This document shows positions 566 through 20,280 of a stretch of 64,000 nt of DNA, one piece after another (position 1 is the stretch's first letter; each line of letters begins with the position of its first letter). The notes beneath the pieces are model-generated. The model did no database searches. It had not been told where the DNA came from and saw only the letters and a list, made by a program, of their open reading frames with translations. The stretch is taken from assembly GCA_037833965.1 (NCBI GenBank), contig AP031352.1, forward strand, positions 7,606,501 to 7,670,500, in the 5' to 3' direction. The position numbers and the translations under genes are program-made. Source of the DNA: Marchantia polymorpha subsp. ruderalis. Its lineage: Eukaryota; Streptophyta; Marchantiopsida; Marchantiales; Marchantiaceae.

Positions 566-569
566 ATGC

Positions 570-945
570 TGTCGTGCGAATACGTATCGCCATACATCAT
601 ACATCGCTGACATGCTACTCACATACACATACACACACATACACACATATAAGGCGCGAGAGAGTACACACTCAAATGTCACAACTGAAATAAACGGGAG
701 ATTCCCCATTGGAATTCCCGTCGGTCGTTTACCCTACTGGCAAAACCGTCACCGTCACAAACATAGTCAAGCCAAACCCACTCCACACTCGGAGATTGCA
801 GGTCGATGCTCCCGAGCACTACTCCCAACGCGCTAGGCTTGACTCGAAGAACTGACGTTCTTCGAGCCGTCTCCGATCTATACCCTCTGACCTGAAACCC
901 TAGGCTCGACGCTACTTTTAGAAAAACACCAAAAACTACATCACA
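570..945 (-). repeat. Left (3') LTR of the DNMT element
   Basis: Positions 686-945 match 18,174-18,467 over a 260-bp module beginning TGTGATGTAG and ending TTTATTTCA on the minus strand. By eye there are roughly 20 substitutions between copies. The module is followed by a 118-bp segment (570-687) that occurs again at 946-1063. Ending the LTR at 570 gives TG...CA termini and a shared flanking ATGC; ending it at 686 gives no duplication. A TATA-like stretch lies in the 118-bp module. Confidence 0.65.
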
Positions 946-1063
946 GCTGTCGTGCGAATACGTATCGCCATACATCCTACATCGCTAACATGCTACTCAC
1001 ATACACATACGCACACATACACACATATAAGGCGCGAGAGAGTACACACTCAATGTCACAACT
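946..1063 (-). repeat. 118-bp module duplicated on both sides of the LTR core
   Basis: Near-identical copies lie at 568-685 and 946-1063 and flank the 260-bp LTR core. They share the GCTGTCGTGCGAATACGTAT start, a CA-rich middle and a TATAAGGCGCGAGAGAG stretch, and differ at only a few bases. The right-hand LTR of the element lacks this module. The arrangement could be an internal LTR duplication or the trace of unequal recombination. On the minus strand, a G-rich purine run that could serve as a polypurine tract lies just upstream of the 946-1063 copy. Confidence 0.75.
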
Positions 1064-1240
1064 TGCCCCCATAGTTGGCGGTCAGGTCCCTCTAACTCCC
1101 AAGTAGCCCTATCTACAACTACATGCTATACACTTTCGTGGGTGCGCGAACGAGTAGGCCAAGTGCTATGTTGCCCCATCGTTAGTCGCCTATCTGCAAT
1201 TCATAACATGTGAAGATCAAATCATCTACCCCTCTGAAGT

Positions 1241-1375
1241 ACATTGATGACAAACCCATCGTCCAGCCGGAACAACATCGATAGGCGGAGTTAGACACGA
1301 CATGTGCCATCCCCTAGAGCACATATCACACACCAACATACGGGCCGCCTGACCAGCTGACCCACACAGCATGCA
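1241..1375 (-). pseudogene. PHD finger at the C-terminus of the retroelement integrase
   Basis: The minus-strand frame starting at 1561 contains a textbook Cys4-His-Cys3 zinc finger. The spacing is C-x2-C-x11-C-x2-C-x4-H-x2-C-x14-C-x2-C, with motifs CMLCG, LVCDMC, GWHMSC and WVCHQC, and a Trp two residues before the last Cys pair. All eight zinc ligands are intact. PHD fingers read histone H3 tails, usually K4 methylation state. Here it sits where chromoviral integrases carry a chromodomain, so a role in choosing integration sites is a reasonable inference. The finger follows a short linker after the integrase C-terminal domain and ends the polyprotein. It lies in a different frame from the integrase fragment at 1591-2094, so this copy has a frameshift between them. 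Confidence 0.85.
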
Positions 1376-2094
1376 TCTTAAGCCAGCACGTACTATTGCT
1401 AAGCTTGGGTCCATAGTGCCATCTACGTTTGGGAGGTGGCATGGCGCACAATTGCGCACATGATCCTTCCAAACAACACCGTCACGACCCTCCAACAGGA
1501 GAACTCCAGAAGGTAACACCTCCCGCACTCGCAAGATTGTGCGTCTCGCCATCACATCCAATGTCGTCGGTGCACTCTGCTGTAGATAGACTAGTCTCTC
1601 ACATGGAATCTACAAAGCGATGGTCGATAACCTCCTCCCCGAATGGTTGCATATCGCAACGTATCTCTATGTTGAGCTATCGCAAGATTCTCAAACGTTG
1701 CACGCATAACTCTTCGAAAGAGCTCTGCACGCTGAGAACATACTCTCATCCACATATTCGAATCATCAAGGTTCACCACCTCGCTACACTCACGACGAAT
1801 CGATGTTGGCAAGTCTGGATCTCCGCCGTACAATAGAAAATATGGTGAGAAAGAAGCCAAGGATGCCTGCCGATTGAACCGATATCCCATGGCCAACCAT
1901 GGTAACTTAATATCCGAGTCCCCAAGATGACCTTTCTATATGCCATACTTGTGCAACGCCCTCTTCACCGTTTGTACAACACGTTCAGCTAAACCATCCG
2001 CCTCTGGATGATCTCGCGACGTGGTACCCACTATGCCTGGCACCATGCTGGTCCGTAGGAACTCCAACACCAATGCATCATCATGAACATCACG
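1376..2094 (-). pseudogene. Integrase remnant of the DNMT element (core truncated)
   Basis: The minus-strand translation shows the end of a retroviral-type integrase core: a HPEADGLAERVVQTVKRALH segment of the kind that carries the catalytic Glu. A region typical of gypsy integrases follows, with FLLYG and an IAQHRDTLRYA-like stretch (1591-1896), then an SH3-like tail reading into the PHD finger. The N-terminal HHCC zinc domain and the first two catalytic Asp motifs are missing between about 2040 and 2095, which points to an internal deletion. At least one in-frame stop (near 1930) and a frameshift (near 1590) further inactivate it. It was presumably a strand-transfer enzyme for integrating the element cDNA. 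Confidence 0.75.
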
Positions 2095-2287
2095 CTAATC
2101 CACACCACCATCCTCAACCTCAGGATCTGAAGATCGACCATCTATTCTCTGACTAGAGTAAGATGTCAGATGATACTCTCTGCTGGAGTTTCCACCTAAC
2201 CAACACATGAAGGTAGATGCATGCCAACCAGGCACCATCTCCTCGTCAACCTCACCATGCCATCTAGCTCCAGTGTCATCCTCCTGG
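2095..2287 (-). pseudogene. RNase H to integrase linker of the DNMT element, cut off by the nested insertion
   Basis: The open minus-strand frame from about 2287 to 2095 continues the RNase H reading frame found at 8389-8709. Once the nested element and one CTTGT copy are removed, the frame runs on without interruption. It encodes an acidic linker with no known motif and ends at a stop just before the deleted integrase core. Confidence 0.7.
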
Positions 2288-2292
2288 CTTGT
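2288..2292. repeat. Target site duplication CTTGT, left copy
   Basis: CTTGT directly precedes the 5' LTR of the nested gypsy element and recurs directly after its 3' LTR at 8384-8388. Five base pairs is the usual length for Ty3/gypsy integration. Confidence 0.95.
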
Positions 2293-2712: not shown

Positions 2713-2713
2713 A

Positions 2714-2725
2714 TGGTATCAGAGC
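2714..2725 (+). other. Primer binding site for initiator tRNA-Met
   Basis: TGGTATCAGAGC begins two bases after the 5' LTR. It is the standard complement of the 3' end of plant initiator methionine tRNA and primes minus-strand cDNA synthesis. Confidence 0.95.
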
Positions 2726-3325: not shown

Positions 3326-4578
3326 ATGGGGACATCAATTGATATGGGTGAGGTTCTCAATGCAATCATGGCGGAGATGAAAGAGTTGAGAAAAGCGATA
3401 GTAAATGGGCACACCAAGCAGCAAACCATGGAAGATAAAATCTTCGCATTGGAGAATGAGAAAGTAGAGAGAGAGAGAGAGTTGGAGAGATGGAAGTTGA
3501 ACCTCAAGTTCAAGCTTCCCAAGTTCAGTCAGAACCAACTCCTATTGATGCAGTAGAGTCAAATAGGAGACATCTTCAAGAGATTGAAGATCAAGCAAAT
3601 CTTTTGCTTCGAATGGGAAAATCCTGTAAGGTGGAAGCTTACAAAGGGAGTAGAGCAATGGGAGTGTTAGAAGGATGGATTATGAGGATGAATATTCATT
3701 TATTCCATTTTCATGTTTTTGATTATATTGCAGGAATGTTCATTATATCTTATCTTACGGATAAGGCTCTCACATGGTACACAATATGGGAGAGAATGCT
3801 TTCAGAACGAGGTGCTACCATTTCATGGAGTGGAATGCAGAAAGGACTTCTGCAAAATTTTCAAGCGGTAGATTCTCTTCAAACGGCAAGAATGAAGTTG
3901 TGGGATCTGAAGCAGAAAAGAGGTATTCATGAGTATATTGAAGAATTTCGTGATCTTCAAGTATCTATCATGGATATGAGTGGAGCTGAAGCCTTGGACG
4001 TGTTCAAATGAGGCTTGAAAGATCGAATTCGAAAGGAGGTGATGATAAGCAATCCATCTACTGTGAATGAAGCAATTGCAATTGCTCAACAAATTTCAGG
4101 TCCTTTTGGTGTTACACACGGTGAACCAGTCAGCAATTTTTGAGATCCATCTGGTCCAACACCGATGGAGTTGGGAAACCTTTGACGTAGAGAAGGTTTT
4201 GCACCAACAAGAGGACCACCACCAAGATTTGGAGTTGAAATTCGGCGACCAGGAGTTCCAAATTTGCAAGAAGGTTATGCAAATAACGGAATGGTTCGAG
4301 AAGGAGCTGGAGTTCGTGACAATTGTCAATGCTATGCATGTGGACGAATGGGTCACATAGCCAAGTTTTGTCGAGTTCGGCCGACACAACAAGGAGGACA
4401 GCCCATGCAGCGACGACCGTTCAACAATATGGAGGGGATAGAGTATGAAGAGGTGGAGGAAGCAGTTTCGGGAAACGAAGATCACCGTAATCTTGCCTTG
4501 CGGCCTTACTGGTTCTACAAAGCGAAGAAAAGGCGAGGTTGGAAGAAGGCAATGATTGGGAGCTCATGGAAGGAGTAA
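3326..4578 (+). pseudogene. Gag of the nested gypsy element
   Basis: The start at 3326 opens a charged, coiled-coil-like N-terminus. A retrotransposon gag capsid core follows (3490-4011; motifs LTWYTIWERML and LKQKRGIHEYIEEFRDL), then a CCHC zinc knuckle, CYACGRMGHIAKFC, around 4330-4370. The capsid forms the virus-like particle and the knuckle binds element RNA. A frameshift near 3490, an in-frame TGA at 4009-4011 and a second frameshift before the knuckle break the frame. A run of GA dinucleotides (about 3466-3482) sits at the first frame change. Confidence 0.85.
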
Positions 4579-5040
4579 GAAGCAAGCTCAACTCATTGTC
4601 ATTGATGGTTTCATGGAAGGACCCAAGAGGAGAGTTTTAATTGATCCTTGAGCAATTGAGAATTTTCTATCAAGGAGTGTTGCTATGAAGTTAGGTTTGA
4701 TGTTGATGAAGGACGTGAGTGAAGAAGTTGAATTGCCAAACGGGCAAACTGAAGTGATAGAAACACTACCACGTAGTGTAGAATTATCCATAGGTAGATA
4801 CAAGGAGAGCATTGAATGGAAAGTAATTCGTTTAGCTCGATATGATGTCATACTTGGAATGCCATGGATGGAGCAATATAATCCGAAGGTAGATTGGAGA
4901 AGAAAAGTGATTACAAGTAGTGGATGGAAGATCTATGGAGATAGAATTAGATCTCAGAATAGAAATTTACCCCTCTTTGTGATGGGTACAGCATCCATTT
5001 CTAGAAATGATGTATGTTTCCTTGAACTTATAACAGATAT
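4579..5040 (+). pseudogene. Aspartic protease of the nested gypsy element, active site lost
   Basis: The region after the zinc knuckle reads as a retropepsin. A VLIDP-stop-AIENF sequence stands where the catalytic D-[ST]-G-A motif is expected (4639-4665), followed by [16 protein letters not shown], the conserved flap/C-terminal motif of gypsy proteases. The stop falls inside the catalytic motif, so the enzyme cannot be made. Its normal role is cleaving the Gag-Pol polyprotein. Confidence 0.8.
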
Positions 5041-5977
5041 TGGGTCCACGGACAAACCTTACATCCCGGAGTCCTTGAACGACATTTTTATGAAGTATAA
5101 AGATGTTTTTCCATATGATCTACCTGCAGGATTACCACCAAAGAGGCGAGTAGATCACAAGATTGAGGTGATACCTGGAAGTACACCAACTTGCAAAGCT
5201 CCATATCGTTTGGCTCCAAACGAATTGGAAGAATGCAAAGCTCAAGTGGAGGAGATGTTGAGCAAGGTATTCATTCAACCAAGTGTTTCACCTTATGAAG
5301 CTCCAGTACTCTTTGTGAAGAAGAAGGATGGATCCATGAGACGATGTATCGATTATCGCGGGTTGAATCAGCAAACGGTGAAAAACAAATATCCATTACC
5401 TTGTATGGATGATTTGTTTGATCAACTTCAAGGAGCGAAGTACTTCACCAAGCTAGATTTGAGAAGCGGCTACAATCAAATTCGAATTGCAGATGAAAAT
5501 GTTCACAAGACAGCTTTTCGTACTAGGTATAGACACTTTGAGTATCTAGTGATGCCTTTTGGTCTCACTAATGCACCAGCTACATTCATGAACGATATCT
5601 TTCACCCTTATCTAGATAAATCTGTCATTATTTTTCTAGATGATAAATTGGTGTATAGCAAAACTTTGAGTGATCATAGAAGTCATTTACGAGAGGTACT
5701 TCAAGTTTTAAGAGACAATCAATTGTATGCCAAAGCTTCAAAATGTGAATTTGGCAAGTCAGAATTAGATTACTTGGCTCATAGAGTTACAGCTACAGGA
5801 ATCCAAGTGATGAGTGAGAAGATAGATGTCATTCAGAAATGGATAGCACCTAAGGATCAAACTCAATTGAAGAGTTTTCTAGGGCTCACTGAATTCTATC
5901 TTAGATTTGTGAAAGGTTTTGCTCGCCTAGCTCAGGCCTTGACTTCCATGTTAGAGAAAGGTCAAAAATGGAGATGA
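5041..5977 (+). pseudogene. Reverse transcriptase of the nested gypsy element
   Basis: An open frame covers the RT fingers, palm and thumb: [17 protein letters not shown]-type sequence ([10 protein letters not shown]), [14 protein letters not shown] with the first catalytic Asp, [15 protein letters not shown], and [11 protein letters not shown]. The last is the YxDD box, here with Lys where Ile is usual. It ends at [17 protein letters not shown] and a TGA at 5975-5977. The catalytic Asp residues are present; the Lys next to them and the stop suggest a dead polymerase. Confidence 0.9.
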
Positions 5978-6588
5978 GGAACATCTCAAGAGTTGGTTTT
6001 TCAAGCATTGAAAGATGCTTTGTTACACGCACATATTCTCAAGTGGTATGATCTTAACCGTTCTATCAAGTTGGCCACTAACGCATAAGGTACAACAGTA
6101 GGTGGCATACTTCAACAAGAATGGGAGTATGGATGGCATCCAGTTGCTTTCTATTCTCAAAAGTTGATGGCGGCGGAACAAAATTATCACACGACAGAAC
6201 GAGAGGAGTTAGTCATCGTGTTGGCAACCAAACATTGGAAGCATTACTTGGATGATAAGAAGTTTGTGGTGGAGACTGATCATAAACCCTTGGTTTATTT
6301 GAAAACTCAGAAGGATCTGTCCAAACGACAAATTCGATGGTTAGAGTGGCGTCAACCATGAAGATTGTGTACGTGGAGGGAAAAAAGCGAGTGGCGTCAA
6401 CCATAAAGATTGTGTATGTGGAGGGAGAGAAGCAACTTGCAGATGCTGTCACACGCATACCTTGTTTGAATCATGTTGCAGAAGTGAAAATTCAGGCGGA
6501 TTGGTGGAGCAAGATGTCACAAGCCACAAAGGAGGATGAAGAGATCACTCGGGCACTACAAACTGGAAAGGCTTAGAAATCTCGAGGT
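5978..6588 (+). pseudogene. RNase H of the nested gypsy element, with an internal duplication
   Basis: The frame continues after the TGA into a gypsy RNase H: AFYSQKLMAAEQNYHTTERE, ETDHKPLVYL and RQIRWLEW. The expected first-Asp segment is damaged (SIKLATNA followed by TAA at about 6086). A 45-bp tandem duplication at 6344-6433 and the resulting stops wreck the C-terminal part. Another TAG at about 6574 separates this from the integrase. Confidence 0.85.
6344..6433 (+). repeat. 45-bp tandem duplication in RNase H
   Basis: Units 6344-6388 and 6389-6433 both begin GAGTGGCGTCAACCAT and differ at about four positions, all G/A or C/T changes. The duplication is in-frame in length, but the units carry stop codons in the RNase H frame. 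Confidence 0.95.
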
Positions 6589-7950
6589 TTGGCGTTTTAC
6601 AATCAGCGTATATGGATTCCACAAGATCACGATTTGCGCACAATGATTTTGGCAGAAAGTCATGATACAGCCATTGCAAGTCATGTGGGAGTAGAGAAAA
6701 CCGTGGAGAGTATACAACGAGTGTACTATTGGCCCAAAATACGTGAGGATTTGGAGTCTTATGTTCGAAGTTGTTTTGCTTGTCAACAAAACAAGGCAAG
6801 TAATCAAAAACCAACGGGTTTATTACAGCCTCTTCCTATTCCCGAACAACGGTGGGAACATGTCACTATGGATCTTGTATGTGAGTTACCAAGGATTTCG
6901 TTAGGACATGATTCAGTGGTGGTTTTTGTGGACAAATTGAGCAAGATGATTCACATCAGGCCAACCACAAAAACAGTAACAGCTCCACAACTAGCTCAAT
7001 TGTATCTAGATGCAGTTTTTGTGAATCATGGCTTAAGCAAAGTGTTAATCACGGATAGAGGTACTCACTTCACTAGTTTATTTTGGAAAACTTTGTTTAG
7101 TTTTTTCAAAACAAAACTAACAATGTCAACGGCCTATCACTCTCAAACTGATGGACAAACTAAGAGGGCAAATAGAACCATAGAGGGTATGCTACGAGCA
7201 TTCACATTAGAAAAGCAAGAAGAGTGGGACAACCTTTTGCCACTTGTGGAATTTGCATATAACAATTCTGTTAATGCATCCACAAAAGTGTCTCCATTTT
7301 TTCTTATGTATGGAGCTCATCCTATAACTCCTTCAAGTTTGATGAGACTTCCCAAAGAAGAGGAGTTTTCGACCAAAGTTGCAGCAGTTAACGAATTTGT
7401 GGAGCATATTCACCGAGGATTACATCAGGCCAAGGAAAAGTTGGTGATAGCTCAAAATTGGCAAAAGCAGCATGCCGATGCTCATCGTAGAGAAGTGGTT
7501 TTTGAGGTTGGAGATCATGTTTGGTTATCTACAACAAATTTGTCTCTTGTAGGAACACCAAAGTTGAACTCTAGTTTCATTGGTCCATTTTTGGTTTTGA
7601 AGCGTGTTGGTGAAGTGTCATACAAGTTGGAACTTCCGTCACATATGAAAATACATCCAGTATTTCATGTGTCACGATTGCAAAAACATGTACCACGACC
7701 AAAACAATTCACCAACCAACCAGCACCACCTCCTCTTCCAACCTTGATAGCAGATCATGAGGAGTTTGAAGTAGAAAAGATACTCAAGAAACGTATTCGA
7801 GGTCATAAATATCCCAAAGTAGAGTATATGATTCAATGGAAAGGCTATCCATTGTATGAATCAACTTGGGAATCAGCTAAAAATTTAGCAAATGCACCTT
7901 TGATAGTTCAGGAGTTTGAACGTATGTGCAACGAGGACATTGCATCTTAA
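6589..7950 (+). pseudogene. Integrase with C-terminal chromodomain, nested gypsy element
   Basis: A long open frame of 453 codons. It contains the HHCC zinc domain (H..H about residues 24-28, then CFACQQNK), the DDE core with TMDLV (first Asp) and ITDRGTHF (second Asp), a GPFLVLKRVGEVSYKLELP-type C-terminal domain, and a chromodomain (about residues 390-445; EFEVEKILKKR, EYMIQWKGYP, STWES). Chromodomains tether integration to methylated-histone chromatin. At the third catalytic position the motif reads DGQTKRANRT: Lys stands where the conserved Glu is expected. A single G-to-A change accounts for this and should abolish strand transfer. The frame itself is otherwise intact. Confidence 0.92.
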
Positions 7951-7963
7951 AAGGAGGGAGGTT
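7949..7963 (+). other. Polypurine tract of the nested gypsy element
   Basis: AAAAGGAGGGAGG directly before the 3' LTR start at 7964, and directly after the integrase stop codon, is the expected plus-strand primer. Confidence 0.85.
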
Positions 7964-8383
7964 TGTAACCATCTTTAGTTAGTTAGAAATAAAGTAGAGG
8001 TTACTCTAAATATTGATGTATATACTTTAGTGTGCACTAGTCATAGCTGCTACGTCAGCGATCCGCGCACTTGGTAGGTACACAGTGGATGTGTTAGTTG
8101 ACAGTGCCACGTCAGCAATCCGTGTGCTTGTAGGTAAGGATTGAATGTGTTAGTTAGTGTGTTAGTTGAGTGCGTCACGTCAGCGATCCGTGTGCTTGTT
8201 AGGGTTATCCGCCACGTCATCCATCCACTAGGAGTGGGATGGGCGGTGGAGATTAGATCTTATCTCCTTGTACTTGTTGGTGAGAGCTATATAAGGGAGA
8301 GTAGAAACATTGTTGGTATCTCTCATCTTCAGAGTTTACGTTTCTATCTTCGAGTGAGCTTCTCCCTAAACCCTAGTGTTACA
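7964..8383 (+). repeat. 3' LTR of the nested gypsy element
   Basis: This 420-bp copy of 2293-2712 has a TATATAAG box at 8288-8295. It is followed by the CTTGT target duplication at 8384-8388. Confidence 0.95.
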
Positions 8384-8388
8384 CTTGT

Positions 8389-8990
8389 GCATAGGTTCCA
8401 ACTCAAACCATCAGCATCGAGGTTCGCAACTCCAGGTCTATGCACTACCTGAAAGTCGTACTCCTGTAAGATGAGAGCCCACCGTGCAAGCTTCCATGTG
8501 AGCTTGTCAGACTCCATCAACCACTTGAGCGGCTGATGATTAGTAACAAGGGTGAACTGCGTATCAAACAAGTAACACCTGAAGTGTGCCACAGCCCACA
8601 CCGTTGCCAAGCACTCTCCCTCGTACAAACTATATCGCGACTCCGCTGCATTGTTCGAACGACTAGCGTACGCAACCACAAACTCCTTGCCCTCATCATC
8701 ACGCTGCGTCAACACCGCTCCAAGTCCGACATACTCCAATCAGTGTGCAACTGGTATGGACGACCTTTGATAGGTCTCCTCAAGATGGGAGCGGCCATCA
8801 ATCTGGCCTTGAGCTCAACAAAAACTCTCTTCTGCTCATCTCCCCATTGCCACTCCTGATCTGACTTCAGCAACTGGTTCAAAGGCTTGGCTATAGCACT
8901 TAATCCCTTCACATACCTCCGGTAGTAGTTCGCCAAACCCATGAATGCACGAACTCTACTCACATCCGTGGGATGAGGGAGTGCGTGCAA
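8389..8990 (-). pseudogene. RT connection and RNase H of the DNMT element
   Basis: The minus strand reads the gypsy RT thumb (VRAFMGLANYYRRYVKGLS, 8709-8990) and then RNase H (GLGAVLTQRDDEGKEFVVAYASRS, YEGECLATVWAVAHFRCYL, LARWALILQEYDFQVVHRPG; 8389-8739) ending at DADGLSWN. A frameshift near 8720 separates the two parts. The RNase H catalytic Asp/Glu region is recognisable. The nested element at 2293-8383 interrupts the frame immediately downstream. Confidence 0.88.
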
Positions 8991-9864
8991 TAGCCTCCAC
9001 CTTTGCTTGCTGAACTTCTAAACCACCTGGGTATATCACATGACCCAAGTACTCAACCTTCTCCTGGAAGAACTTACACTTCCCAGGATGTAACCTCAAA
9101 CCATGAGCCCTCAACCGCTCAAACACAATCTGCAAATGTATCTGGTGTTGCTCCACAATGTCACTAAACACCAAGATATCATCAATGTAACATCTCACAA
9201 AATCCAACCCCGCCAGAATTTTGTCCATAACCCTCTGAAACTCGGCATGTGCATTCTTCAACCCAAAGGGTAAGAATCGCCACTGATACAAACAATCCTT
9301 GCCGTGGGAGTTGACACCCCAAAACGCTCTCTTGGTCTTGTCCTCCTCCCGAATTGGCAACTGATGGTATTCTGATCGGAGATCCAAAGTACTAAAAATC
9401 CCCGCATGTCCCATCACATCGAAGATCTCCTCGGGTGTTAGGCATGACATGCTTATCGGACTTCGTCTGTCGATTGATAGGACGGTAGTCTCCACACATG
9501 CGCCTATCCGTGTAGTTGCCATGTACATCCTTCTTCACCGGCATGACAGTGGCTAATGCATACTCACCATGCAATAACTCCACTAGTCCAACGTCCAGTA
9601 GGTCCAACGTCCTACTTTGAATCAATTCCTCTCCATCTCATTGTATCGATAAGGACGACGGAAGATTGGCGTATCACTAGCCAATTCTATCCGTATACCG
9701 GGTCCAATCAACGCACCCAACTCTTTCATACTGAAAGCAAAACAACTCCTACAGTCTCGTAGGAATTGTGTCAATCGTCGCCTCTCTCCTCCTGTGATAT
9801 GGGAACCAATCAATGGCTCCCATTCCTCCTCCATACACACACTAGAGGGAGGCGACACTATCAA
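8956..9864 (-). pseudogene. Reverse transcriptase of the DNMT element
   Basis: Three overlapping minus-strand frames cover one RT. 9622-9864 holds the N-terminal part (FRRPYRYNEMER). 9392-9625 holds VMPVKKD and MCGDYRPINRQT. 8956-9528 holds STLDLRSEYHQLPI (first Asp), LPFGLKNAHAEFQRVMD and RCYIDDILVFS (the YIDD catalytic box), then YLGHVIYPGG. The catalytic Asp residues are all present. Two frame changes (near 9620 and 9460) break it. It follows the methyltransferase in the same frame, so the two were probably one polyprotein. Confidence 0.9.
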
Positions 9865-10109
9865 TGGTTGCTACACTACATCTTGCAAAGAAGGGTTCTC
9901 CATACCTTCCTTCGTAGACACCTCCACATGAGAATACTCTCCATCTGCATGGGCTACAACTCTAGCAAGTCCTCTCGTCACGTCCCATGAAGTCCAAGGA
10001 TGACAAATATCTCGCCTGTCGCCCCCGGCCATTGCCACTACCGTACCGGTAGGCAATGAGTTAACAAGTGATGTACTAACCACCAAATCAACGCGCAAAC
10101 GGCGTTGCT

Positions 10110-11100
10110 CCACCAAACCCAAGCTCACAATCCACGTCAAGCAGTTCATGTCCATAGCTTGACCCAAAACCTGACGAAGCGAAGCCTCTGAAACTGAAGC
10201 AGCTGCGGTCACATTAGTCATAAATCCCATCGCACGCTCTTTCTCATCAACGTTGGGCTCCACCAACTGATGTACAGTACTATCCCACAGTAGTCCAGGT
10301 CCACCATCACGATATGCATGTGATGTTGGATAACTAACCAACGTAGGTAAAGTCATCCGAGGCTGACCTACGCGGTTCACCAACGCCATAGTTGACCTAT
10401 CAGCTACCCTCACCACCTAAGAGTGTCGGAAAACATCCAAGATACTGTCAACGGTGAGTGTAGGATCATGCTGCACTGAATCATAGGTATGACGCAATAT
10501 CTAACGTGGCAAAAGGTTTGTCCACCATAAACGTGCACGATGAGCACGTGATCCAACCCGCGCACCATCCAACAGTACTGCTGATCCAATCCATGCTCGG
10601 ACCTGATGGACACTCGCCATCAACTGAACCCGAGTGTCACCCAACAATGGTACGTTCTCCAGAATGTATGTTGGAGAACGTGTCTTGTGCACCTGAAGAT
10701 GACGTAACACTCGCATCACCTCCCAAAACATCCGAGATCTAGGTTCATGCAACCTTGTCCCATGTCCAGCGCGTGTGTGTCCCTTACATGGCCAGCCCGC
10801 AATCACCATATCCATATGACCAACGCGGTCAAGGTCCGGCGCCCCCAGCAACGAAATGTCTGAAGGCAACGCCTTCTGGTATACTCGAACCGCTGATCGC
10901 GGCAATAACGAAGGAAAACGCTGCATCGATTGTGCAACATGTCGTGAAGAGACTCGACGTGCAGTCTCGTCCTTCTCCACATACAAGTATCTCCGTACGA
11001 GAATACCTTACTGCAACACTACAGCCAAAAATGTGCTGATGCCACCAAAAAGATCCAGCAAACAAACGCCCTCTGGGAATATTTCCATGCAATATGTGTA
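10110..11100 (-). pseudogene. C5-cytosine DNA methyltransferase domain inside the retroelement
   Basis: A single minus-strand frame carries the DNMT motifs in canonical order. Motif I is GVCLLDLFGGIS (SAM binding, about 11,041-11,075), motif II YVEKD, and motif IV AGWPCKGHTRAG (catalytic Cys codon 10,786-10,788). Motif VI is YILENV (about 10,650), motif VIII RVGSRAHRARLWWTNL, and the motif IX/X region ERAMGF...SEASLRQVLGQAMD (about 10,150-10,250). The AHRAR signature and short motif spacing look most like the DNMT3 group; the order is not permuted, which argues against DRM. The PC-Cys and ENV residues needed for catalysis are kept. The frame is interrupted by TAA at 11,008-11,010 and two TAG codons near 10,500 and 10,420. 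It sits between protease and RT, in frame with RT, so it is part of the pol polyprotein and not a neighbouring gene. Confidence 0.9.
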
Positions 11101-11369
11101 GTAACCAATGGTGATAGCGTGCTAGAACCACATACTAGGCGATCACCTGAAGCTCTCTCTGCCTCTGCTGGTAAAGAGGCTTCACTCCAAGCCTTCTTCA
11201 CCAACCTAGCAGCCTCCAACTGTAATGCCTGACAAGAACTTTAAAGTGGAACATCTAAGGGTGAAGGCACCACCGCTGCGAAACTCACAACTTCCTTCAC
11301 ATCCTCGTAGACTGAGGTATCGTCAGCCGACATGTTCTCCTCTAACAAGTCATCAGGCCAGGTAAGCAC

Positions 11370-11876
11370 TCAACTGAAACCCGCAACAGATGCTAAGACC
11401 GCAGATGAAGATCCAAGAGGTCGATCCCGACAAATAAATCTCATTGGCATCTCGCTCAGACGTCCATCACCAGACTTCCAACCAGGACAACAGGCAGCTG
11501 TCTCCGTCCAATAGTTCATCCAAAAACCCATCGGATATAACACAGCTCCACCAACAAGCACATCATATGACTCTGTTGATGTAATCACCGCACGAACTCC
11601 AAACTGCGAGCTATCATGAGCATGATCAAGCCTCAACTGCACCGATATGCTCTCCCTTGTCATAAAATAAGACCTATCACTGGCACCACCAAGTGAAGTC
11701 TGGATCTGGAATGGGCAAGGTTCTAACTCTGACCTCCAAATACCCAAACTAATGCATGCAGCCTTGTCCAACATCAAGGGCTGTGCACCAGAATCCAGCA
11801 AAACTCTGGCTGGACATAGACCTGTCCGATAGAGCTTACTAAGCGAAATAAGCCACCTCGGTTGTCCACCATACAC
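11370..11876 (-). pseudogene. Aspartic protease of the DNMT element
   Basis: The minus-strand open frame contains ARVLLDSGAQPLMLDKAA, a good retropepsin active site (D-S-G-A), and SYDVLVGGAVLYPMGF, the matching C-terminal flap-region motif. It lies between gag and the methyltransferase and would cut the polyprotein. The frame ends at 11,370, about 250 bp before the methyltransferase frame opens, so a frameshift or a spacer separates them in this copy. Confidence 0.85.
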
Positions 11877-12298
11877 ACACCAAGGACAATACTTTCACGA
11901 TCAATGGCTGGTCGAGCTGGTAAGTACTTCATCCTTGCCGCTGCCGCCTACCAAATCGTCTCCTCGAACAATGTAGACGTTGAGGATGGGTTCTCAACCG
12001 TATCCTCATGTATCTCGGCACTCGTAGCAGTGACTCTCCCACGCTCACACGACGTGGCTGCTACCCGAAATACTCGAGCCAAATCAATAATAGAGTCCAT
12101 CAACTCCATGGCTGAAAACAATGGAGATCGCAAGACTGAAGTGGCCATCCGCATCACTACACTAGATAGCACGTATGCGTCCACAACAGATGATGTAAGA
12201 ACCTCAGTTCTCACTCCAGTGTCACTAGGCGGTGCAGGTCTCATAGATGAACTGCTAGCCACCTCCGACAATAAAAAGAACTGGGGAATTCTAGACCG

Positions 12299-12337
12299 AC
12301 GTCCACCCTCACCCCTTTGAGGGGTGAGGGTGGACGT
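12299..12337 (-). promoter_or_regulatory. 18-bp perfect hairpin immediately after the gag stop
   Basis: ACGTCCACCCTCACCCCT is followed by a 3-nt loop and its exact complement. On the minus strand the gag frame stops with TAA at 12,337-12,339, overlapping the hairpin edge. The -1 frame (ending 11,948) is open through the hairpin and onward. A strong stem at a gag/pro junction fits a role in translational recoding or RNA folding. No classic slippery heptamer is visible just upstream, so the role is inferred. Confidence 0.6.
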
Positions 12338-14705
12338 TAGTCATCCAACTCCACAGTCGCACCACGTGGCTCTGAAGCGCAAGCACCACCTCTGGTCACT
12401 GCAACTGATGCCTCAACCTGTGCCGCACTGGCCAAATAGGAGAAATCCTCTCCCTCGTAAGATGTGGAAGTGCTCGCCCCCAAAATAGCCATAGCAGCAA
12501 GTCTCTGCTCCAATTGCTCAATCCGGACAGCCATAGCGCTCTCTGTGGCTGAAGTAGCACTTGCTGCGGTACGCTCAACGGCACCGGTACTGCAACCTCC
12601 GGGCTGACTCTCACTGAGGGTTACCTCTGATGGTTTTGCGGTAGCGCATCATGGTTCTAGAAGACTAGGATTCATCCTCACACTCATGTCCCAAACACCT
12701 TCTATCAAAAACTCTCCATGTATCACTCCAACTCACACACAAACTCTACTCACCTCACTCTCTTCACATAAACGCGAACACACGTCGATACTCCAAGATA
12801 AAAAAAACTTCACTCCTTCATTCCTGAAACAAGTCCTCACACTTGACTCTCCAAACTTGCTTGAGAGATGCTACTCTACCTCTCTATTTATACTACTTGA
12901 GAAGTTACCATAGTAACATGTGGTCATTTCTCCTAACTTACTTTTACCTAGGCAAGTTTGATTAACCCTCTCTATGTGGCAACATGCCATTGGCCTAGCT
13001 AAACCTTCTAGAAGTTTCCGGAATCCAAGGTTGAGGTGGCGACATGCCATTGGAAGCTTTTAAACTTCTACAAGCTTCTTAGCCACTAAGTCAACACTAG
13101 ACTTAGTCTAGCCAATCATCTTTCATACATTTTAGTCTAACCAATTAAATCCAAGCTTTTAGTCAAATATCTAATCCCTTGGAATCTAGAACTTTTGTAT
13201 AAGAAAAAATAGAAGTGCTCACCCCTTGTAAAAGACAAAATAGAACCGCTCACTCCATTCTTCTAGAACTCCGCTAATCATTCCGCCAACTATAGACATT
13301 GTATCTAAACTTAGTTATAACTAACTAGTTTAGTCATAACTGGCTAGACTTAGCTATCCCTTGGCTACTCATCCTTAATCACTTGACCACTTCTAAGACT
13401 TAGTACATATGTGCAACACCCAGTCTTACAGTACCTCTACCGCCTCTGCCACCTCGACCTCGTGGAGCATCACTGCCACGACCTCTACCTCCAGATCTCA
13501 ACTCATGATGAAGGTCAAAACAACGTTCTCGAGGGTGACCCGGTCGATGACAATGATCACATGTCACCTGTGCCGGCTATGGCCTAGCCTCTGAAGTTTG
13601 TCCCTCTCTCTCCTGGGGACAATCCTTCCTCATATGACCACCTCCGCATGTCCAACATGACGGTCCTTGTGGCTGGCCAGAAATGAAGGCAGTGGTGGTC
13701 ACGCACTAGGCTCTCTGTGACCTGAAGGATGTCGTGTATGACCTCCACGACTCCCACTACCACCACCCATGGGACGAGACTGTGTTGTATTGTGTGAGAT
13801 ACGCGAGGTAGTAGTCGTGTCCCTCGCAAATGTAGACGTCATCACCCTCTCCACCATGTTAAGCTCAATCTTCTCTGAAAGAGCAAACACATGGGCTAAT
13901 ATGGGTGATGAGTCGCTCATGAGAGTAGCATCACACACTCTCCTCCGCAACTCTCTGTCTAGATACCAATACCAGTACTGGACAGCCTGTGCCTCAGTCA
14001 CACCGTGAGTAACCAAAATTAGTCGTCGCATACAAGTGTATGCCTCACAAAGACTCTCATCAGTCTTCCGCTCAAACTCTTGGAGGCTCCTCAACTTTTC
14101 CGTTTTCACCCCCTGATAATTCTTCCTCAACCTCTGGAAGAACTCAGGAATGGGGCTAAACGAAGGTACACCACTAGCATCTCCCCTCGTGCTGCCACCA
14201 GCAATGCAAATAGTACCGCTCCTGGTACTGGTACCAGTTGCGCCAACTGCTCCACTGGTACCCTCGCTGATGCTACTACTCGCACCTCCACGGGTACCCA
14301 CATCACCCTGGGTATGGATAAGTAGTTTGGAGATCAATGGCGCCTCCATGCATCAATCTCCGCAGCATAATCTCTCCCAAACTCATGATAATCGTCCATG
14401 GGAGGCCCCTCCAAATGCTTGAATAATCCCTTCCTCACAAAGAAGGGTGTAAACAACGTGGGGTTACACAGAAACTGCATATCACACCACGTGTCAAACT
14501 CTTGATTAAAATCATCGAGCTCGATGGTGCCCACTGCACTAGAGTAACGTCGAGGGCCCTTCACGGCCCCATACATCCGGTCCATGTCCCAAATCAATGG
14601 GGTTGGAACACTGGACGATATCACCACCAAAGACTTTGTGTCTGCAACATTCTGGTACTCCTCGGCAACAACTGGCGAGATAGGTGAAGGTAGCCGATAC
14701 CTCAA
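12337..14705 (-). pseudogene. Gag of the DNMT element
   Basis: The minus strand from 14,705 reads a gag N-terminus, then a capsid-like region (13,699-14,349; FFQRLRKNYQGVKTEKLRSL, FERKTDESLCEAYTCMRRL, LDRELRRRVCD). Two zinc knuckles follow near 13,620-13,660 (CWTCGGGHMRKDC, one residue short of CX2CX4HX4C) and 13,520-13,561 (CDHCHRPGHPRERC, canonical), then an RGG-rich stretch. After an 840-bp solo LTR insertion the frame resumes in register with a short coiled coil (MAVRIEQLEQRLAAM) and stops at 12,337. The capsid and knuckles package element RNA. Frameshifts near 14,340 and 13,700 break the capsid region. Confidence 0.8.
12591..13430 (-). repeat. Solo LTR (840 bp) inserted in gag
   Basis: On the minus strand this segment begins TGTAAGACTGGG and ends GGTTGCA, with GTAC on both sides (12,587-12,590 and 13,431-13,434). 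Deleting the segment and one GTAC brings the RGG-rich zinc-knuckle frame straight into the coiled-coil frame, which supports the borders. It has a TATAAATA box at 12,886-12,893 (minus strand) and resembles neither the gypsy LTR nor the outer LTR. It is probably left by LTR-LTR recombination of a third element family. Confidence 0.75.
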
Positions 14706-15361
14706 CCCACTCCGCGTAAATCCACCGTGGTCCTCAACATGATCATTAGACTGCTCCGTGATGACGAAACTTCAACTGGCACCACTGCCAGATCTCCACC
14801 CAATAACCCTATGTGCACCTAACGTCGTGCCGCGCTGAGCTACTCTAGCCCTACTAACTAAGAGGTATGGGCAACCTAACCTGTCATCACATCAAGAAGA
14901 CTTTCACGGTCTACTGGTCATCACTCCAGTCTCACCGTGAAAAAAACATAGATAGGTCAGCCGGTTATCAAGTCCAGCCCCCTATCGACAGCACACAGGA
15001 GTAAAACTACTTCTGAAATCAGTGTCACCCCTACACGGGCGCGCACCAAGAAACAAGACTGGAGAGGATCCAAACACAAGCAAACAGCTAGCAACTACTC
15101 TCCAGTCTAAAGGAAACACAACACAAAACAAGACAACACACACGAGACATCGCATTGCTTCGCAATCCCGATTCGATCTCCATCGCCTGCTATCAACTTC
15201 CGCCTCCAGCGCCTACAATGACATCACGTCCACTAAGTCGCGTGGAGAATCTTCACGCTGGACTGTCACACTCCACCTTAAATTGAAGACTATAGTAAGT
15301 GAGACCAAATGCAAATTTCAAGCCTCTTCAGATGAGGTTCTTATAACTCTGAACCCCTAAA

Positions 15362-15405
15362 CTCTTTTTTTTTCTTTTTTCTTTTTTTTTTCTTTTTTTT
15401 TTCTC
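15362..15405 (-). repeat. A-rich tract (minus sense)
   Basis: T-rich on the plus strand with isolated C residues; on the minus strand it reads as a roughly 40-nt A tract broken by single G bases. It lies downstream (minus sense) of the coding-like segments at 16,545-17,170, so it could be the remains of a poly(A) tail. Simple slippage is the alternative. Confidence 0.6.
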
Positions 15406-16544
15406 TTGTCAACTCACATTGACTTCATCAAAGATAATGATGTCTCACAATTTTACAAGCCTCCCTACAAATTTTGTTTGCAAAGAGTCACCATACTCCT
15501 CTTGCTAATTAAACTTTCTACCCCTATAATCTCAGTAACTGTAATCTGCTAGAATTGTAGTTGAATATCCATCCTATGTACCTGAGTTATGAACTGACAG
15601 TACAACGTGAATACTAAACTGAGGAGAATATATGAGAACTTTGCTATAACTTGTTGCTAGCTACGAGAGCTTCAGAGGTAATCTACAAGCTCCCAACAAC
15701 ATTCTAAACAGATGTTTATGAAACTTCATCCCCATTCAACCCTTCATTAACTACATTCGTCCATGATAGTTTGTTATCTGCACTCACATTCAGTGCACTT
15801 CAAGCTACTAATAAGTCTAATCTTCAGAAAGTATTGCGAAGAGATGCTTTACTTCTACTGTCTTGATCCAAAAGACTGTATAAGAATACAGTTTTGAAGC
15901 AAATCCTTACAGATCTTTGCACAACGTGATATCACGAAGAGACCTCTTGCTATCTTGTAGAACTAAGACATAAGAATTTTCATGCCTGGAATACTGATTC
16001 TATGAGAGATAGAGCTAGTTTTGTTAACTATTCTATCAACGGCTCAAAGAATTCAAACCTTAATACACATGGTGGTAGTCTAAACCTCTCAAAAGGCAAC
16101 AATCTACAAACACTTACACCACCCAAAATATTAATTACTGTAGGCCTTTTTAATTACTGCAGGTTTGAATAGTTCGAGTGATCATACTGACGTAAAATGG
16201 CAGGTTACAAAAACACCAATGAACAGTAGCTATCACGCTTGTTCTAACCTTCAAAAAACTGTATCACATACGAGTTCCTACATTATATTTTTGGCTCTTA
16301 AATAGATCCAAATAGTGTAATGTCAAAGCCTCTCGGCCGAAGATCTCACGTCCACCCTGGACGTGAAAATGAACATGGAATGAAAAGAAAGAACGAGAAA
16401 AACTACATTAGGCAGATCCTCTCCTTGTACTGCCAGTGAAGACCACATTCAACCCATAGAGGTGCTAGCTTAGAGTCTTACGACCACAGACCCGCGTCTT
16501 GGATGACAAGTGACTGTGAGATAGAACTATGCGGGATAAGAAAC

Positions 16545-17170
16545 AAAAGATTGTTACTCTCTCTTGGGAATACCACCAAGAGTTGCACCTGGGGTGAGCC
16601 CATTGCTATTGTAGCCACCTGAAACATTGACTCTTCCTCCATCTCCGAAGTAATCTGTCATCCCCCTGCCCATATGCATATGGCTGTGTATTGCAGCCTC
16701 CAGAATCCTCGAAACTCGCATCAGCATGAACATTCACGTTCAGATCCACACCCGATGAGGCTTTACTTCTGGATGTGTCGGATGTTTAATAGATAGACTT
16801 GCTCCATTGTTCAGATTTCCACTTACATGTGATCTCCTGACAACGAGGAGAATACACTCCTCCTTCACACTTCAAACTAATTTGCTATCCTGATTTCACT
16901 TCTTTTCAAACTGAATTCTAGTTAAAATTGACAGCTGCCTTTGATTGATGTTCCAGCTTCTCGTTACAAACGATGACTCAATACTACGGAGTACGTCGTG
17001 AAATTTACATCGGTCCGCAGACCTGGAAGCAAAGGATCAGACGATCCTATGGGAACTAACAGCTCATTGGTAGGAGATAGAAGAATGGGATCTCAAATCC
17101 TGTAACTTGTGAAGTCCAGCAGCTTCTTCAAAAGCCGATAGCAATTCGTCATCATACGACTGTTATCCTA
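16545..17170 (-). pseudogene. Fragments of an unrecognised protein in the leader
   Basis: The minus strand shows several coding-like pieces in register except for small frameshifts: SYDDELLSAFEEAAGLHKL (about 17,100-17,160), NELLVPIGSSDPLLPGLRTD (about 17,010-17,080), SGVDLNVNVHADASFEDS (about 16,700-16,760) and TDYFGDGGRVNVSGGYNSNG, ending IPKRE-stop near 16,555. Composition is like a plant nuclear or regulatory protein C-terminus, but I do not recognise the family. It may be a host gene fragment captured by the element, or a lost accessory ORF. Confidence 0.35.
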
Positions 17171-18173
17171 ACAGTTCAAACCTCCATGCACAACAATTCG
17201 GTCTTGTCCAGCCTTCACAGCTGTGCGCAACGAAGTAATTTCTGAATTCCCTCCAAAAGAATCTCGGAAGAGAAACTACTGCACAAAACCCCCGCTGGAA
17301 AATTTTGCACTAATCTAAGTATCTGGTTAAATCTGAGAATTGCGGTGTCACTGCTCTCAGATTTCGTCACTACCTACTTTTAGATTACGGCACTACCTGC
17401 TTGTGAGCTGACTGAACTTCCTAACTGCGCATGCAGTAACCTGGAGAGGATTCGGAAAGAAGTATGAGAAAAAAAATGTGTTTCTTACAACTCCATGTGC
17501 TGGACATGAACGAATCCGTGAGGTCATTCTTCTACAAGTGTTATTCGCAGTTCTGAATCAACTAGTTCTTGTAGTCCCACGTGACTGTACCTCATTCCAT
17601 TACAACTTTCACGTTCCCGAGCAAATCTAAAACCTAGCTTTCTGTACGATGAACCGATTCCAGTTCTGCCAACAGATTTGTTAAATTTTGACGAAGGAAC
17701 TTTCCAATTCTACACGTCCCAAATCAAACCAAAGGCAGAGGTTGCACTACACCATGTCCGCACGAAAAGTACTAAGGATTTGCATCAACATGGCTTGGTT
17801 TGCAAGATCCAAAGATTGTTAAATCAGAGCACTAAATCTCCCTCGGTACTGTGTAGAAACGTCTTGACGTCTTACACTCCTTCTGGCTCTTCTTAATTCG
17901 CGGAATACACTAACTCCAAATTGTCAACTCAATATTGATGATAAATCAAACAACCTGTTTCCAAACTTCTCCTTGTCAAATCTGGTCCGTCGTCGAGGCC
18001 CCAGGCCTCCCACAGGTAGCCTTCTGCACGACGCAATCTTTCGTTTCCAATTCAATCCATGAGTCGTAACTCGGTGAAACCCTTCTCAATAATTTGCAAA
18101 TTGACATCCGGTCAACCAACCTCAAACAAGAATCGAACGACACATCTGGTGTGTATGCAATGAGTTCTTCGAG

Positions 18174-18467
18174 TGAAATAAACGGGAGATTCCCCGCTGA
18201 AATTCTCGTCGGTCGTTTACCCTACTGGCAAAACCGTCACCGTCACAAACATAGTCAAGCCAAACCCACTCCACACTCGGAGATTGCAGGTCGATGCTCC
18301 CGGGCACTACTCCCAACGCGTTAGGCTTGACTTGAAGAATTGACGTTTTTCGAGCCGTCTCCAACCTATACACTCCGACCTGAAACTCTATGCTCGACCC
18401 TATACACTCCGACCTGAAACTCTATGCTCGACGCTATTGTTAGAAAAACACCAAAAACTACATGACA
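18174..18467 (-). repeat. Right (5') LTR of the DNMT element
   Basis: Matches 686-945 across its length, with TGTCATGTAG at the minus-strand start and TTTATTTCA at the end. It has gained a 34-bp tandem duplication (18,365-18,398 and 18,399-18,432), which explains its 294-bp length. It lacks the 118-bp module present at the left end. Confidence 0.8.
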
Positions 18468-20280
18468 ATGCTCCTTCTACATACTATGCTTTTGTTATTG
18501 ACTTAAAAATGCATTTTTTCACTGTAGATCTCCAACAAATGCATCCAACTCCGCATGTGAAAACATGTTATGTTGTAGAATTTTTTTGTTTTAAAATAAT
18601 GTCCAAAATTAACATCTACATTTCTTATCAAAAATATGGTATTATCTAAACTAACATCAAACAATAAACCAACATACTTTGTAACTTTTAGATATTTAAG
18701 AATTCATTTAACTCTCTCCTAATGAACCTTATACTGGACTTGAATCTACTTACTTTTCTTATAGTTAGATTGCTACCTGATCTAGTGAAATCATCAAAAA
18801 ACATGATATTTCCTACTATTTTATCATAAGGAATGTTAGATATATCTCATTTATCCTCATCAATAGTAGGACATTGAGCATTAAAACATTGGAAATGAGT
18901 TGCCAACATAACGCTCATTTCTCAAACTTTGTGTTTTTCATGTTGAGTTTTGCAAGCATTTGCTTGGTGTACTTGGTTTGATCCAATCATAGCTTAGAAT
19001 GATATGTCAATAGACACGACGTTGACTAAATTTCAAACTTTTTAGTTTGATCTTTAGACTAAAATTATATATTTTGCAACTCATCAAGGAATGTTAATGA
19101 TGTATGACTTGTACATGATGTTTGTTCTTATTGTATTTATTATGTAAAAAATATTTCTTTATATAATTTTAATATCAAATAATTCATTTTATGAGAATAA
19201 TCAATCTTGTAATATTGAAAATATTTGATTAGTTAAAATTTAAATATTTTATAAGATCTAAACTAAATGTTTGAAGTTAGATTCATACATGATATGATAA
19301 AAAAATTATTTCTTTGTTAATATTAAAATACAAATAGTTTTGAGTTGAACTCTTAAACAAATGTTTGATATAGAATTAAATTATAAAATTATGTTATGAT
19401 GACAGAATCATAATAAAACATATAAGATAAAGAGCAATACCATCTATGATAAAATCAACTAGATTATAACACATAAATAATATGTACTTCACTCTCGTTT
19501 GCAAGAGTAACTTGTTAATTGTCATAGATAATGTTGATTTAAAATTTTGTGAACATTATATGATGGCAAACATCAATATGCAATACAAGACTTTGATATT
19601 GGTTATTAAACAATTACTTGCATGTGAACAATGCAATTTATTCAATTATCATTGCATGTGTATGAAACTTTGACTCCAATTTATACCCAACTGGAATCAA
19701 AGTGTTAATCCAAAAAAGTAATATTTATATATAATACTAAAATGTCAAACATATTTTTATGTATATATACATATGATATTGTACTCTAATCTGTTCAAGA
19801 TTTTAATTATATGTACTTGAATAATAATTTCATTAAATATTTTCGATTTTGTTTTTTAATTATAATAAAATAATTTTATATTACATTCCAATAGAAATAA
19901 AACTAATTTCATCTTAGTAAGTGGAAAAAAACACATTATTATATTAAACAACTGAGTTTACACATCTCTTGCATCTTCATTGGAAAATTTCCAACTCTCG
20001 TGAAAATAGAAGAGATTGGTGGTCAGAAAACATAAGAAAATCTAAGATACATTGACAACAATTGCATAAAATGTAGAACTTTTCTTCCTCCTTAATGTGC
20101 AAATTTTGAAACACAGTAGCATTTTGGTGATATTGGATTTCACGACACAATTATATTTTAAATTCTGCGCCCTTGCACCGTTTCTGATCCTTTGGTCTTG
20201 GTATCTAACCCTTACTAAATCTATAGATGATAGACTCTTTCTATTATTTATCATTTGAGTGTCAATTCCATATATCACAT
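18468..20280 (-). mobile_element. AT-rich decayed repeat block with a Ty1/copia relic
   Basis: At about 18,640-18,960 the minus strand shows traces of a copia reverse transcriptase C-terminal/RNase H connection (IPYDKIVGNIM, then ILKYLKVTKYVGLLFDVS) broken by many stops. The rest, to 20,280, is AT-rich with no recognisable coding sequence. Confidence 0.45.

What the first reader, a model, noticed from the sequence alone, without database searches (positions are those of the whole stretch)
10110..11100. A DNA methyltransferase gene built into the pol region of a plant LTR retrotransposon
Seen: one minus-strand frame has DNMT motifs I, II, IV (with the catalytic PC-Cys), VI (ENV), VIII and IX/X in standard order. 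It lies between a retropepsin and an RT and is in the same frame as the RT. Known: retrotransposon-borne cytosine methyltransferases have been reported from charophyte algae and dinoflagellates (de Mendoza and colleagues, 2018). Inference: this would be a land-plant case, of DNMT3-like type. The element could methylate its own cDNA or insertion sites, either to persist quietly or to mimic host chromatin.
Basis: partly seen in the sequence, partly recalled or inferred. Interest (0 to 1): 0.93.

Follow-up and report, generated by a model that had tools for sequence, protein, structure and literature searches.

The report
Retrotransposon carrying its own DNA methyltransferase
The window holds a decayed copy of a repeated jumping gene, most likely from the liverwort Marchantia, whose coat-protein reading frame ends in a DNMT3-type DNA-methylating enzyme; intact copies keep the enzyme's catalytic residues and likely make it along with the coat protein to mark their own new DNA.

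Summary
The window copy is decayed, but its family is repeated: two capped searches give 163 DNMT places, at least two of them host genes, and 24 of 123 scored matches lie in 1351-1365 aa open frames. In 20 of those 24 read, the key motif residues are intact. The domain is DNMT3-type by sequence and predicted fold, with dN/dS 0.13 between subfamilies.

Two corrections. (1) The DNMT is not in pol proper: it ends a Gag-protease-DNMT frame, parted from the same-frame RT-RNaseH-integrase-PHD frame by one TAG in the plant-virus readthrough context, in 33 of 33 copies read. (2) Instead of ordinary LTRs there are split direct repeats, with 4-bp target duplications in the two copies whose ends were both read.

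Relatives occur in other bryophytes, green algae and environmental contigs; DNMT and integrase trees share clades, suggesting an old shared history. DNMT-bearing retrotransposons are already known (de Mendoza 2018), so this is a new variant. Methylation of the element's own cDNA is my best, untested mechanism.

The parts
18174..18467 (-). A1, 5' terminal repeat segment of the window copy (starts TGTC)
   Evidence: 18174-18371 matches segment A2 of the L035 copy at 81%; ends read from sequence
18468..18471 (.). 4-bp target-site duplication GCAT, 5' side
   Evidence: Sequence; repeated at 566-569
14586..18173 (-). Long 5' leader
   Evidence: Between A1 and the first Gag match; 15215-14586 aligns to intact copies
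12334..14585 (-). Gag region, broken over several frames
   Evidence: tblastn of the L031 ORF1, 84-90%; Retrotrans_gag in the intact copy only 0.01, below cut-off
11370..11894 (-). Protease region with DSGA motif
   Evidence: Open piece; weak Pfam Asp_protease_2 0.11; DSGA in 20 of 20 copies
10110..11070 (-). DNMT3-type C5 cytosine methyltransferase domain, decayed here
   Evidence: tblastn 84.7% to the L031 copy over 11085-9874
9871..9873 (-). Conserved in-frame TAG between the DNMT and RT frames
9865..9870 (-). CAACCA, fits the type I readthrough context CARYYA
   Evidence: context defined in PMC5382211 (passages)
8384..9870 (-). RT and RNase H (start of ORF2)
   Evidence: Pfam RVT_1 9.5e-29, RT_RNaseH 3e-31
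1594..2292 (-). Linker and integrase remains; a stretch matching about 570 bases of an intact copy is missing
1235..1594 (-). Integrase C-terminus and PHD finger
   Evidence: tblastn 90.8% to ORF2 residues 923-1042 of L031; PHD 9.2e-11 in that copy
948..1060 (-). B1 repeat
   Evidence: 94% to B of L035; ends read
686..945 (-). A2 repeat
570..685 (-). B2 repeat, 3' end of the element (...GACA)
   Evidence: 95% to B of L035; sequence
566..569 (.). 4-bp target-site duplication GCAT, 3' side

Best explanation
This is a repeated retrotransposon with a Gypsy-type RT-RNaseH-integrase whose Gag-protease frame ends in a DNMT3-type cytosine methyltransferase, which is predicted to be made with Gag, enter the particle and methylate the element's own new DNA, so that fresh copies would arrive already marked as silent. 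Shown: the order Gag-protease-DNMT / TAG-CAAYYA / RT-RNaseH-integrase-PHD, many intact copies, intact catalytic motifs, purifying selection, DNMT3-type sequence and predicted fold, split direct repeats, and 4-bp target duplications in two copies. Inferred: ribosomes mostly stop at the TAG (so DNMT is made at Gag level) and sometimes read through to add RT-integrase; the protease frees DNMT in the particle; DNMT acts on double-stranded cDNA before or at integration; the PHD finger reads a histone tail and guides insertion to chromatin where such a mark does little harm.
Against: No activity, particle, expression or readthrough was measured. CpG is not depleted in three element copies (0.71-0.74, against 0.74 for the window and 0.55 for the nested Gypsy element), so there is no footprint of heavy CG methylation of cDNA. 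The C-to-T excess in young copies covers CG, CHG and CHH, as host silencing would give. Three of 40 DNMT-integrase relatives whose motif IV is covered lack the catalytic Cys, and 20 of 40 read GWECQD, not GWPCQD. Other relatives also miss residues: motif VI Glu in 12 of 151, motif VIII Arg in 22 of 150. 26 of 131 RT matches have no DNMT match within 5 kb; the lists were capped, so whether those copies lack it is open. 27 relatives with RNase H and integrase show no DNMT in the same protein; their ORF1 was not seen.
Confidence: 0.5

Rival explanations
1. The DNMT acts in the nucleus on chromatin around the insertion site or on sister copies, guided by the integrase PHD finger, and so limits its own family to keep the host viable.
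For: PHD C4HC3 residues invariant in 9 of 9 aligned ORF2 proteins, related to CHD4, BHC80, KDM5, ATXR5 and UHRF1 among 100 PDB sequences. The DNMT fold is the de novo type.
Against: PHD and DNMT are in different products if the TAG stops most ribosomes; they share a product only after readthrough. No chromatin data here.
Confidence: 0.2
2. The DNMT is no longer (or not mainly) an enzyme but a DNA-binding or assembly part of Gag, as DNMT3L is a helper without activity (recalled).
For: Some relatives lost the catalytic Cys while keeping the domain (P0105, P0120, P0077); 20 of 40 carry GWECQD.
Against: Motifs kept in 20 of 20 intact copies here; Cys kept in 37 of 40 and 120 of 124 covered relatives.
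Confidence: 0.12
3. It methylates the element RNA, or marks cDNA against DNA-targeting defence, or acts on DNA viruses (idea in PMC6338049, passages seen).
For: The domain is placed with Gag, beside packaged RNA.
Against: Sequence and fold nearest DNMT3; tRNA-C38 (DNMT2-type) enzymes only at 1.2e-4 to 2.2e-3.
Confidence: 0.1
4. The TAG is not read through; the RT frame is translated by reinitiation or from another RNA.
For: Readthrough was not measured; 7 of the 8 relatives aligned begin with Met, one of them from a transcript assembly (P0050).
Against: TAG-CARYYA in 33 of 33 copies; ORF2 is in the same frame and begins directly after the TAG in the copies here.
Confidence: 0.15
5. A chance insertion of a host gene fragment in one copy.
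For: The window copy is decayed.
Against: Order protease-DNMT-RT in 20 of 28 element loci of about 3.3 kb; the other 8 lack one or both neighbours within the piece. 105 of 131 RT matches have a DNMT upstream. The host DNMT3-like gene is only 30% identical (L001).
Confidence: 0.01

Closest known systems
KnitGypsy-Dnmt3 of Klebsormidium nitens (de Mendoza et al. 2018, PMC5890265; section 9 read, other passages searched)
   Same: Dnmt3-type domain in a Gypsy-type element; intron-less, under purifying selection; repeat structure described there as DIRS-like with Gypsy domains
   Different: Described as inside the Pol polyprotein ORF of an alga. Here a land plant, DNMT on the Gag side of a conserved TAG, and a PHD finger on the integrase. 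Its sequence was not among my listed hits, so homology is untested
SymbioDIRS-Dnmt3 and SymbioLINE-Dnmt of Symbiodinium (same paper, passages)
   Same: Retrotransposons carrying cytosine methyltransferases
   Different: DIRS with tyrosine recombinase, or LINE; here a DDE-type integrase domain
DNMT3-bearing elements noted by Sarre et al. 2025 (PMC12344493, 12 of 26 passages shown)
   Same: DNMT3 inside retrotransposons of streptophytes and dinoflagellates
   Different: The one passage I saw that names Marchantia is about 4mC enzymes
Chromoviruses (Gypsy elements with an integrase chromodomain; recalled)
   Same: A chromatin-reader module at the integrase C-terminus
   Different: A PHD finger instead of a chromodomain, plus a DNMT

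Membership tests
Ty3/Gypsy pol | RT-RNaseH-integrase order with a DDE integrase domain | tested here: met
   RVT_1, RT_RNaseH, Integrase_H2C2, rve in that order in L031 ORF2
Canonical LTR retrotransposon | The same long direct repeat at both ends | tested here: not met
   A1...B1-A2-B2 instead: in the window copy B occurs twice and only at the 3' end; in the L035 copy the 60 bases read before A1 are not B; 37 of 40 scored 3' ends have B2 directly after A2
Integrase-made insertion | Short fixed target duplication | tested here: met
   4 bp in 2 of 2 copies with both ends read: GCAT (window), ATCT (L035/L051)
DIRS | Tyrosine recombinase, no target duplication | tested here: not met
   rve integrase and no recombinase match in the ORF1 and ORF2 scanned; 4-bp duplications
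DNMT3 | Closest to DNMT3 by sequence and fold, motifs unpermuted | tested here: met
DNMT3 | Groups with cellular DNMT3 in a tree | tested here: inconclusive
   Only two cellular rows, one partial; they pair (100/100) on a branch of 2.47
DRM | Rearranged motif order | tested here: not met
   Motif I precedes IV, VI, VIII, IX; entries named DRM2 matched only in part, at 1.2e-6
DNMT1/MET1/CMT | Closest to DNMT1 or CMT | tested here: inconclusive
Active C5-MTase | Catalytic Cys, motif VI Glu, motif VIII Arg | tested here: met
   20 of 20 copies; activity itself not testable here
Type I stop readthrough | UAG followed by CARYYA | tested here: met
   33 of 33 distinct copies read; of 520 TAGs in four copies 7 fit, four of them this site itself
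Type I stop readthrough | Measured readthrough | not testable with these tools
   Needs a reporter or ribosome profiling
KnitGypsy-Dnmt3 | Common descent of DNMT and pol | not tested
   No listed hit was named Klebsormidium

The most novel reading that the evidence does not exclude
A single ancient green-lineage family of mobile reader-writer elements: a DNMT3-type writer, made at Gag dosage through programmed TAG readthrough, and a PHD reader on the integrase have travelled together from green algae to bryophytes, with the DNMT moving between two places in the polyprotein, and each new copy installs its own silencing mark. This would replace independent recent capture by one old co-inherited system.
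Probability: 0.35. Interest if true: 0.87.

Novelty: new variant of a known kind. Interest (0 to 1): 0.74.

Why it matters
[quoted passage not shown] Here is a repeated, apparently young one in a genome that is most likely that of a genetically tractable bryophyte. If active, a transposon that methylates itself reverses the usual arms-race story: silencing would be a service the parasite brings along. Intact copies and a likely host with published methylomes (PMC5784723, passages) make this directly testable. The DNMT-plus-PHD pairing in green algae and bryophytes also bears on whether plant transposons captured DNMTs many times or once.

Tried and rejected
Chance frame or host fragment: rejected. 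Ordinary LTRs: not found by self-comparison of 20 copies, though those pieces did not reach A1; the window copy and L051 settled it. DRM, DNMT1/CMT and DNMT2 assignment: weaker than DNMT3; the structural list is not exhaustive and a family missing from it is not excluded. CG depletion as a footprint of self-methylation: not seen. Viral source of the DNMT: best viral structural match a phage enzyme at 1.4e-15, against 8.2e-19 for DNMT3A in another library, so not strictly comparable. One IMG/VR scan with P0022: nothing. A Copia RT search served no purpose. PMC9033089 looked relevant but the phrase was DRM2. Searches for a print report of a Marchantia DNMT element. I looked at passages of five papers found (PMC12344493, PMC5784723, PMC6338049, PMC9033089, PMC10952607) and at listings for the rest, and found none; subscription papers are mostly not held.

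Pairing of RT and DNMT matches was first done with the capped lists (79 of 131) and again after one search was answered (105 of 131). The window's own DNMT is in neither capped DNMT list, which shows that absence from them means little.

In one search, and for the window copy, 17 of the 20 copies were used; L043, L045 and L046 were left out because ORF2 breaks early. One row pairs P0023 with P0052 on the guess that they share a contig (same source and contig length).

Full report
OBSERVATION. The minus-strand frame 11100-10110 carries C5-methyltransferase motifs in standard order with three in-frame stops. Pfam DNA_methylase matches the open piece 10504-11007 at 3.6e-8, over its cut-off. The neighbours are a protease-like frame (DSGA; Pfam only weak, 0.11) and RT/RNase H (9.5e-29, 3e-31). 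Between the DNMT and RT frames stands one in-frame TAG at 9873-9871, followed by CAACCA.

THE WINDOW COPY. Comparison with intact copies and the sequence itself lay it out on the minus strand: A1 18467-18174, a long leader, Gag, protease, DNMT, TAG, RT-RNaseH to 8384, then 2292-1235 (integrase remains and PHD), and B1-A2-B2 down to 570. GCAT flanks both ends (566-569, 18468-18471). A plus-strand Gypsy-type element sits inside it at 2293-8383, with 421-bp LTRs 96.4% identical and a 5-bp duplication CTTGT; its C-terminus looks like a chromodomain by eye. About 570 bases of the integrase region are missing, counted on an intact copy (7740-8310 of L035).

THE FAMILY. PF00145 against the window's own genome (241 Mb, 9 contigs) scored 123 of 290 candidates, all over the cut-off; 24 lie in open frames of 1351-1365 aa and none in a longer one. 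A DNMT protein query scored 117 of 656, again with no frame over 1365 aa. Together they give 163 distinct places. At least two are host genes by eye: a DNMT3-like gene (L001) and a DRM-like gene (L002). I fetched 20 of the 24. They fall into subfamily A (14 copies) and B (6), about 81% identical in ORF1 and 94-95% where ORF2 is full length; 14 of 20 have a full ORF2 of 1042-1045 aa. The genome is most likely Marchantia polymorpha: its copies match M. polymorpha proteins at up to 96.6% over full length and 100% over 240 aa, against 76% for the one M. paleacea fragment compared. That is an inference.

ARCHITECTURE. ORF1 is Gag (weak Pfam, 0.01; two zinc-knuckle-like motifs by eye), protease and DNMT; ORF2 is RT, RNase H, integrase and a PHD finger (9.2e-11). 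The two are in one frame, parted by TAG. In 33 distinct copies, the window's included, the codon is TAG 33 times and the next six bases are CAACCA 32 times and CAACTA once (20 copies; 23 loci and the window; 11 copies are in both sets and were counted once; 5 of 28 loci gave no junction). TAG-CARYYA is the type I readthrough context of tobamoviruses (PMC5382211, passages). One A and one B copy agree at 9 of 9 bases here while the flanks agree at 45/60 and 46/54. Of 131 scored RT matches (3200 candidates) none lies in a frame beyond 1059 aa, so no fusion of ORF1 and ORF2 was seen. These copies are related by descent, so they are not 33 independent events. Readthrough itself is inferred. 105 of the 131 RT matches have a DNMT match within 5 kb upstream; 26 do not, with capped lists.

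REPEATS. Self-comparison of the 20 copies shows no ordinary LTR. The 3' end is B1 (about 119 bp), GC, A2 (about 290 bp), B2; 37 of 40 scored 3' ends have B2 directly after A2. A1 lies at the far 5' end: of 11 A1-A2 pairs that I can make from the 40 rows, 9 are 10.7-12.0 kb apart and two are 15.9 and 29.7 kb. For the L035 copy both ends were read: A1 and A2 differ at 1 of 292 sites, and ATCT flanks the element. Termini TGTC...GACA and 4-bp duplications fit a DDE integrase; the B1-A2 joint GACAGCTGTC is a perfect palindrome. The KnitGypsy-Dnmt3 figure legend also reports DIRS-like repeats with Gypsy domains (PMC5890265, section 9).

RELATIVES. Three protein searches gave 44, 205 and 209 proteins, of which 44, 120 and 120 were listed (two of them scored only the candidates sharing most words). 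Named land plants in the lists are all bryophytes: Marchantia polymorpha, M. paleacea, Riccia sorocarpa, Calypogeia fissa, Sphagnum fallax, S. troendelagicum. Named algae: Cymbomonas, Volvox, Tetrabaena. Of the 166 proteins held, 55 show RNase H and integrase together: 22 have DNMT between them (type II), 4 have DNMT before RT in one protein, one is a partial Marchantia model, and 28 show no DNMT, one of them the Marchantia ORF2 whose DNMT is in ORF1; the ORF1 of the other 27 was not seen. The DNMT tree holds the type II rows together (95/92) and pairs the two cellular DNMT3 rows (100/100, branch 2.47), while three DNMT-RT single-frame proteins stand loose. The integrase tree repeats several of the same type II clades, though there type II is not one clade because P0042, a long branch, stands apart; distances correlate (r 0.64). 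I read this as one old association with a change of place; horizontal spread or two related captures are not excluded.

AGAINST MY READING. No CG depletion. C-to-T type changes in young copies are raised in all contexts (CG 4.3, CHG 2.6, CHH 2.8 per kb against 0.5 for transitions at A:T, 13 copies), and the window copy is highest in CHG (82 per kb against 37-42): this fits host silencing as well as self-marking. Three of 40 covered DNMT-integrase relatives and four of 124 others lack the Cys (one by a gap), motif VI and VIII residues are missing in some, and GWECQD replaces GWPCQD in 20 of 40. 26 of 131 RT matches lack a DNMT partner in capped lists.

MECHANISM. The Gag-side place is the new clue: if most ribosomes stop at the TAG, the cell makes many Gag-protease-DNMT chains for each RT-integrase, putting the enzyme in the particle where cDNA forms. 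I therefore favour methylation of cDNA, with the PHD finger guiding integration. De Mendoza et al. proposed cDNA methylation for DIRS elements (PMC5890265, passage), so that idea is theirs; the dosage, stop and PHD parts come from this work. Everything after the domain order is inference.

The late answer raised the RT-DNMT pairing from 79 to 105 of 131.

Noticed in passing
window 2293-8383: A plus-strand Gypsy-type element (chromodomain-like end by eye) nested in the DNMT element; 421-bp LTRs 96.4% identical, 5-bp duplication CTTGT, so it came later.
   Followed up: yes
L035 828-1178 (and like places in other subfamily A copies): A small acidic ORF of 116-119 aa about 1.06 kb upstream of ORF1 in 10 of 14 subfamily A copies (83 aa in L038, not found in L032, L034, L041); unknown role.
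   Followed up: partly
L035 9388-9397: The B1-A2 joint is a perfect palindrome GACAGCTGTC, made of the element's own end and start sequences; looks like a circle junction.
   Followed up: no
proteins P0038 and P0040: Type II relatives carry a further C-terminal Rossmann-like stretch with SPWF, perhaps an N4/N6 methyltransferase remnant (recalled resemblance).
   Followed up: no
proteins P0077, P0105, P0120: Relatives without the catalytic Cys; P0077 is named Volvox reticuliferus and P0120 Tetrabaena socialis. The DNMT domain is kept but likely inactive.
   Followed up: partly
type II proteins: Motif IV reads GWECQD, Pro replaced by Glu beside the Cys, in 20 of 40 covered.
   Followed up: no
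L001, L002: Host genes by eye: a DNMT3-like and a DRM-like methyltransferase, only distantly related to the element's.
   Followed up: partly
window 8384-12590: In the decayed window copy C-to-T changes are about twice as frequent in CHG as in CG or CHH (one copy).
   Followed up: partly
protein P0171: Labelled as from a Candidatus Obscuribacterales MAG but 48% identical to the element DNMT; likely a mis-binned contig.
   Followed up: no
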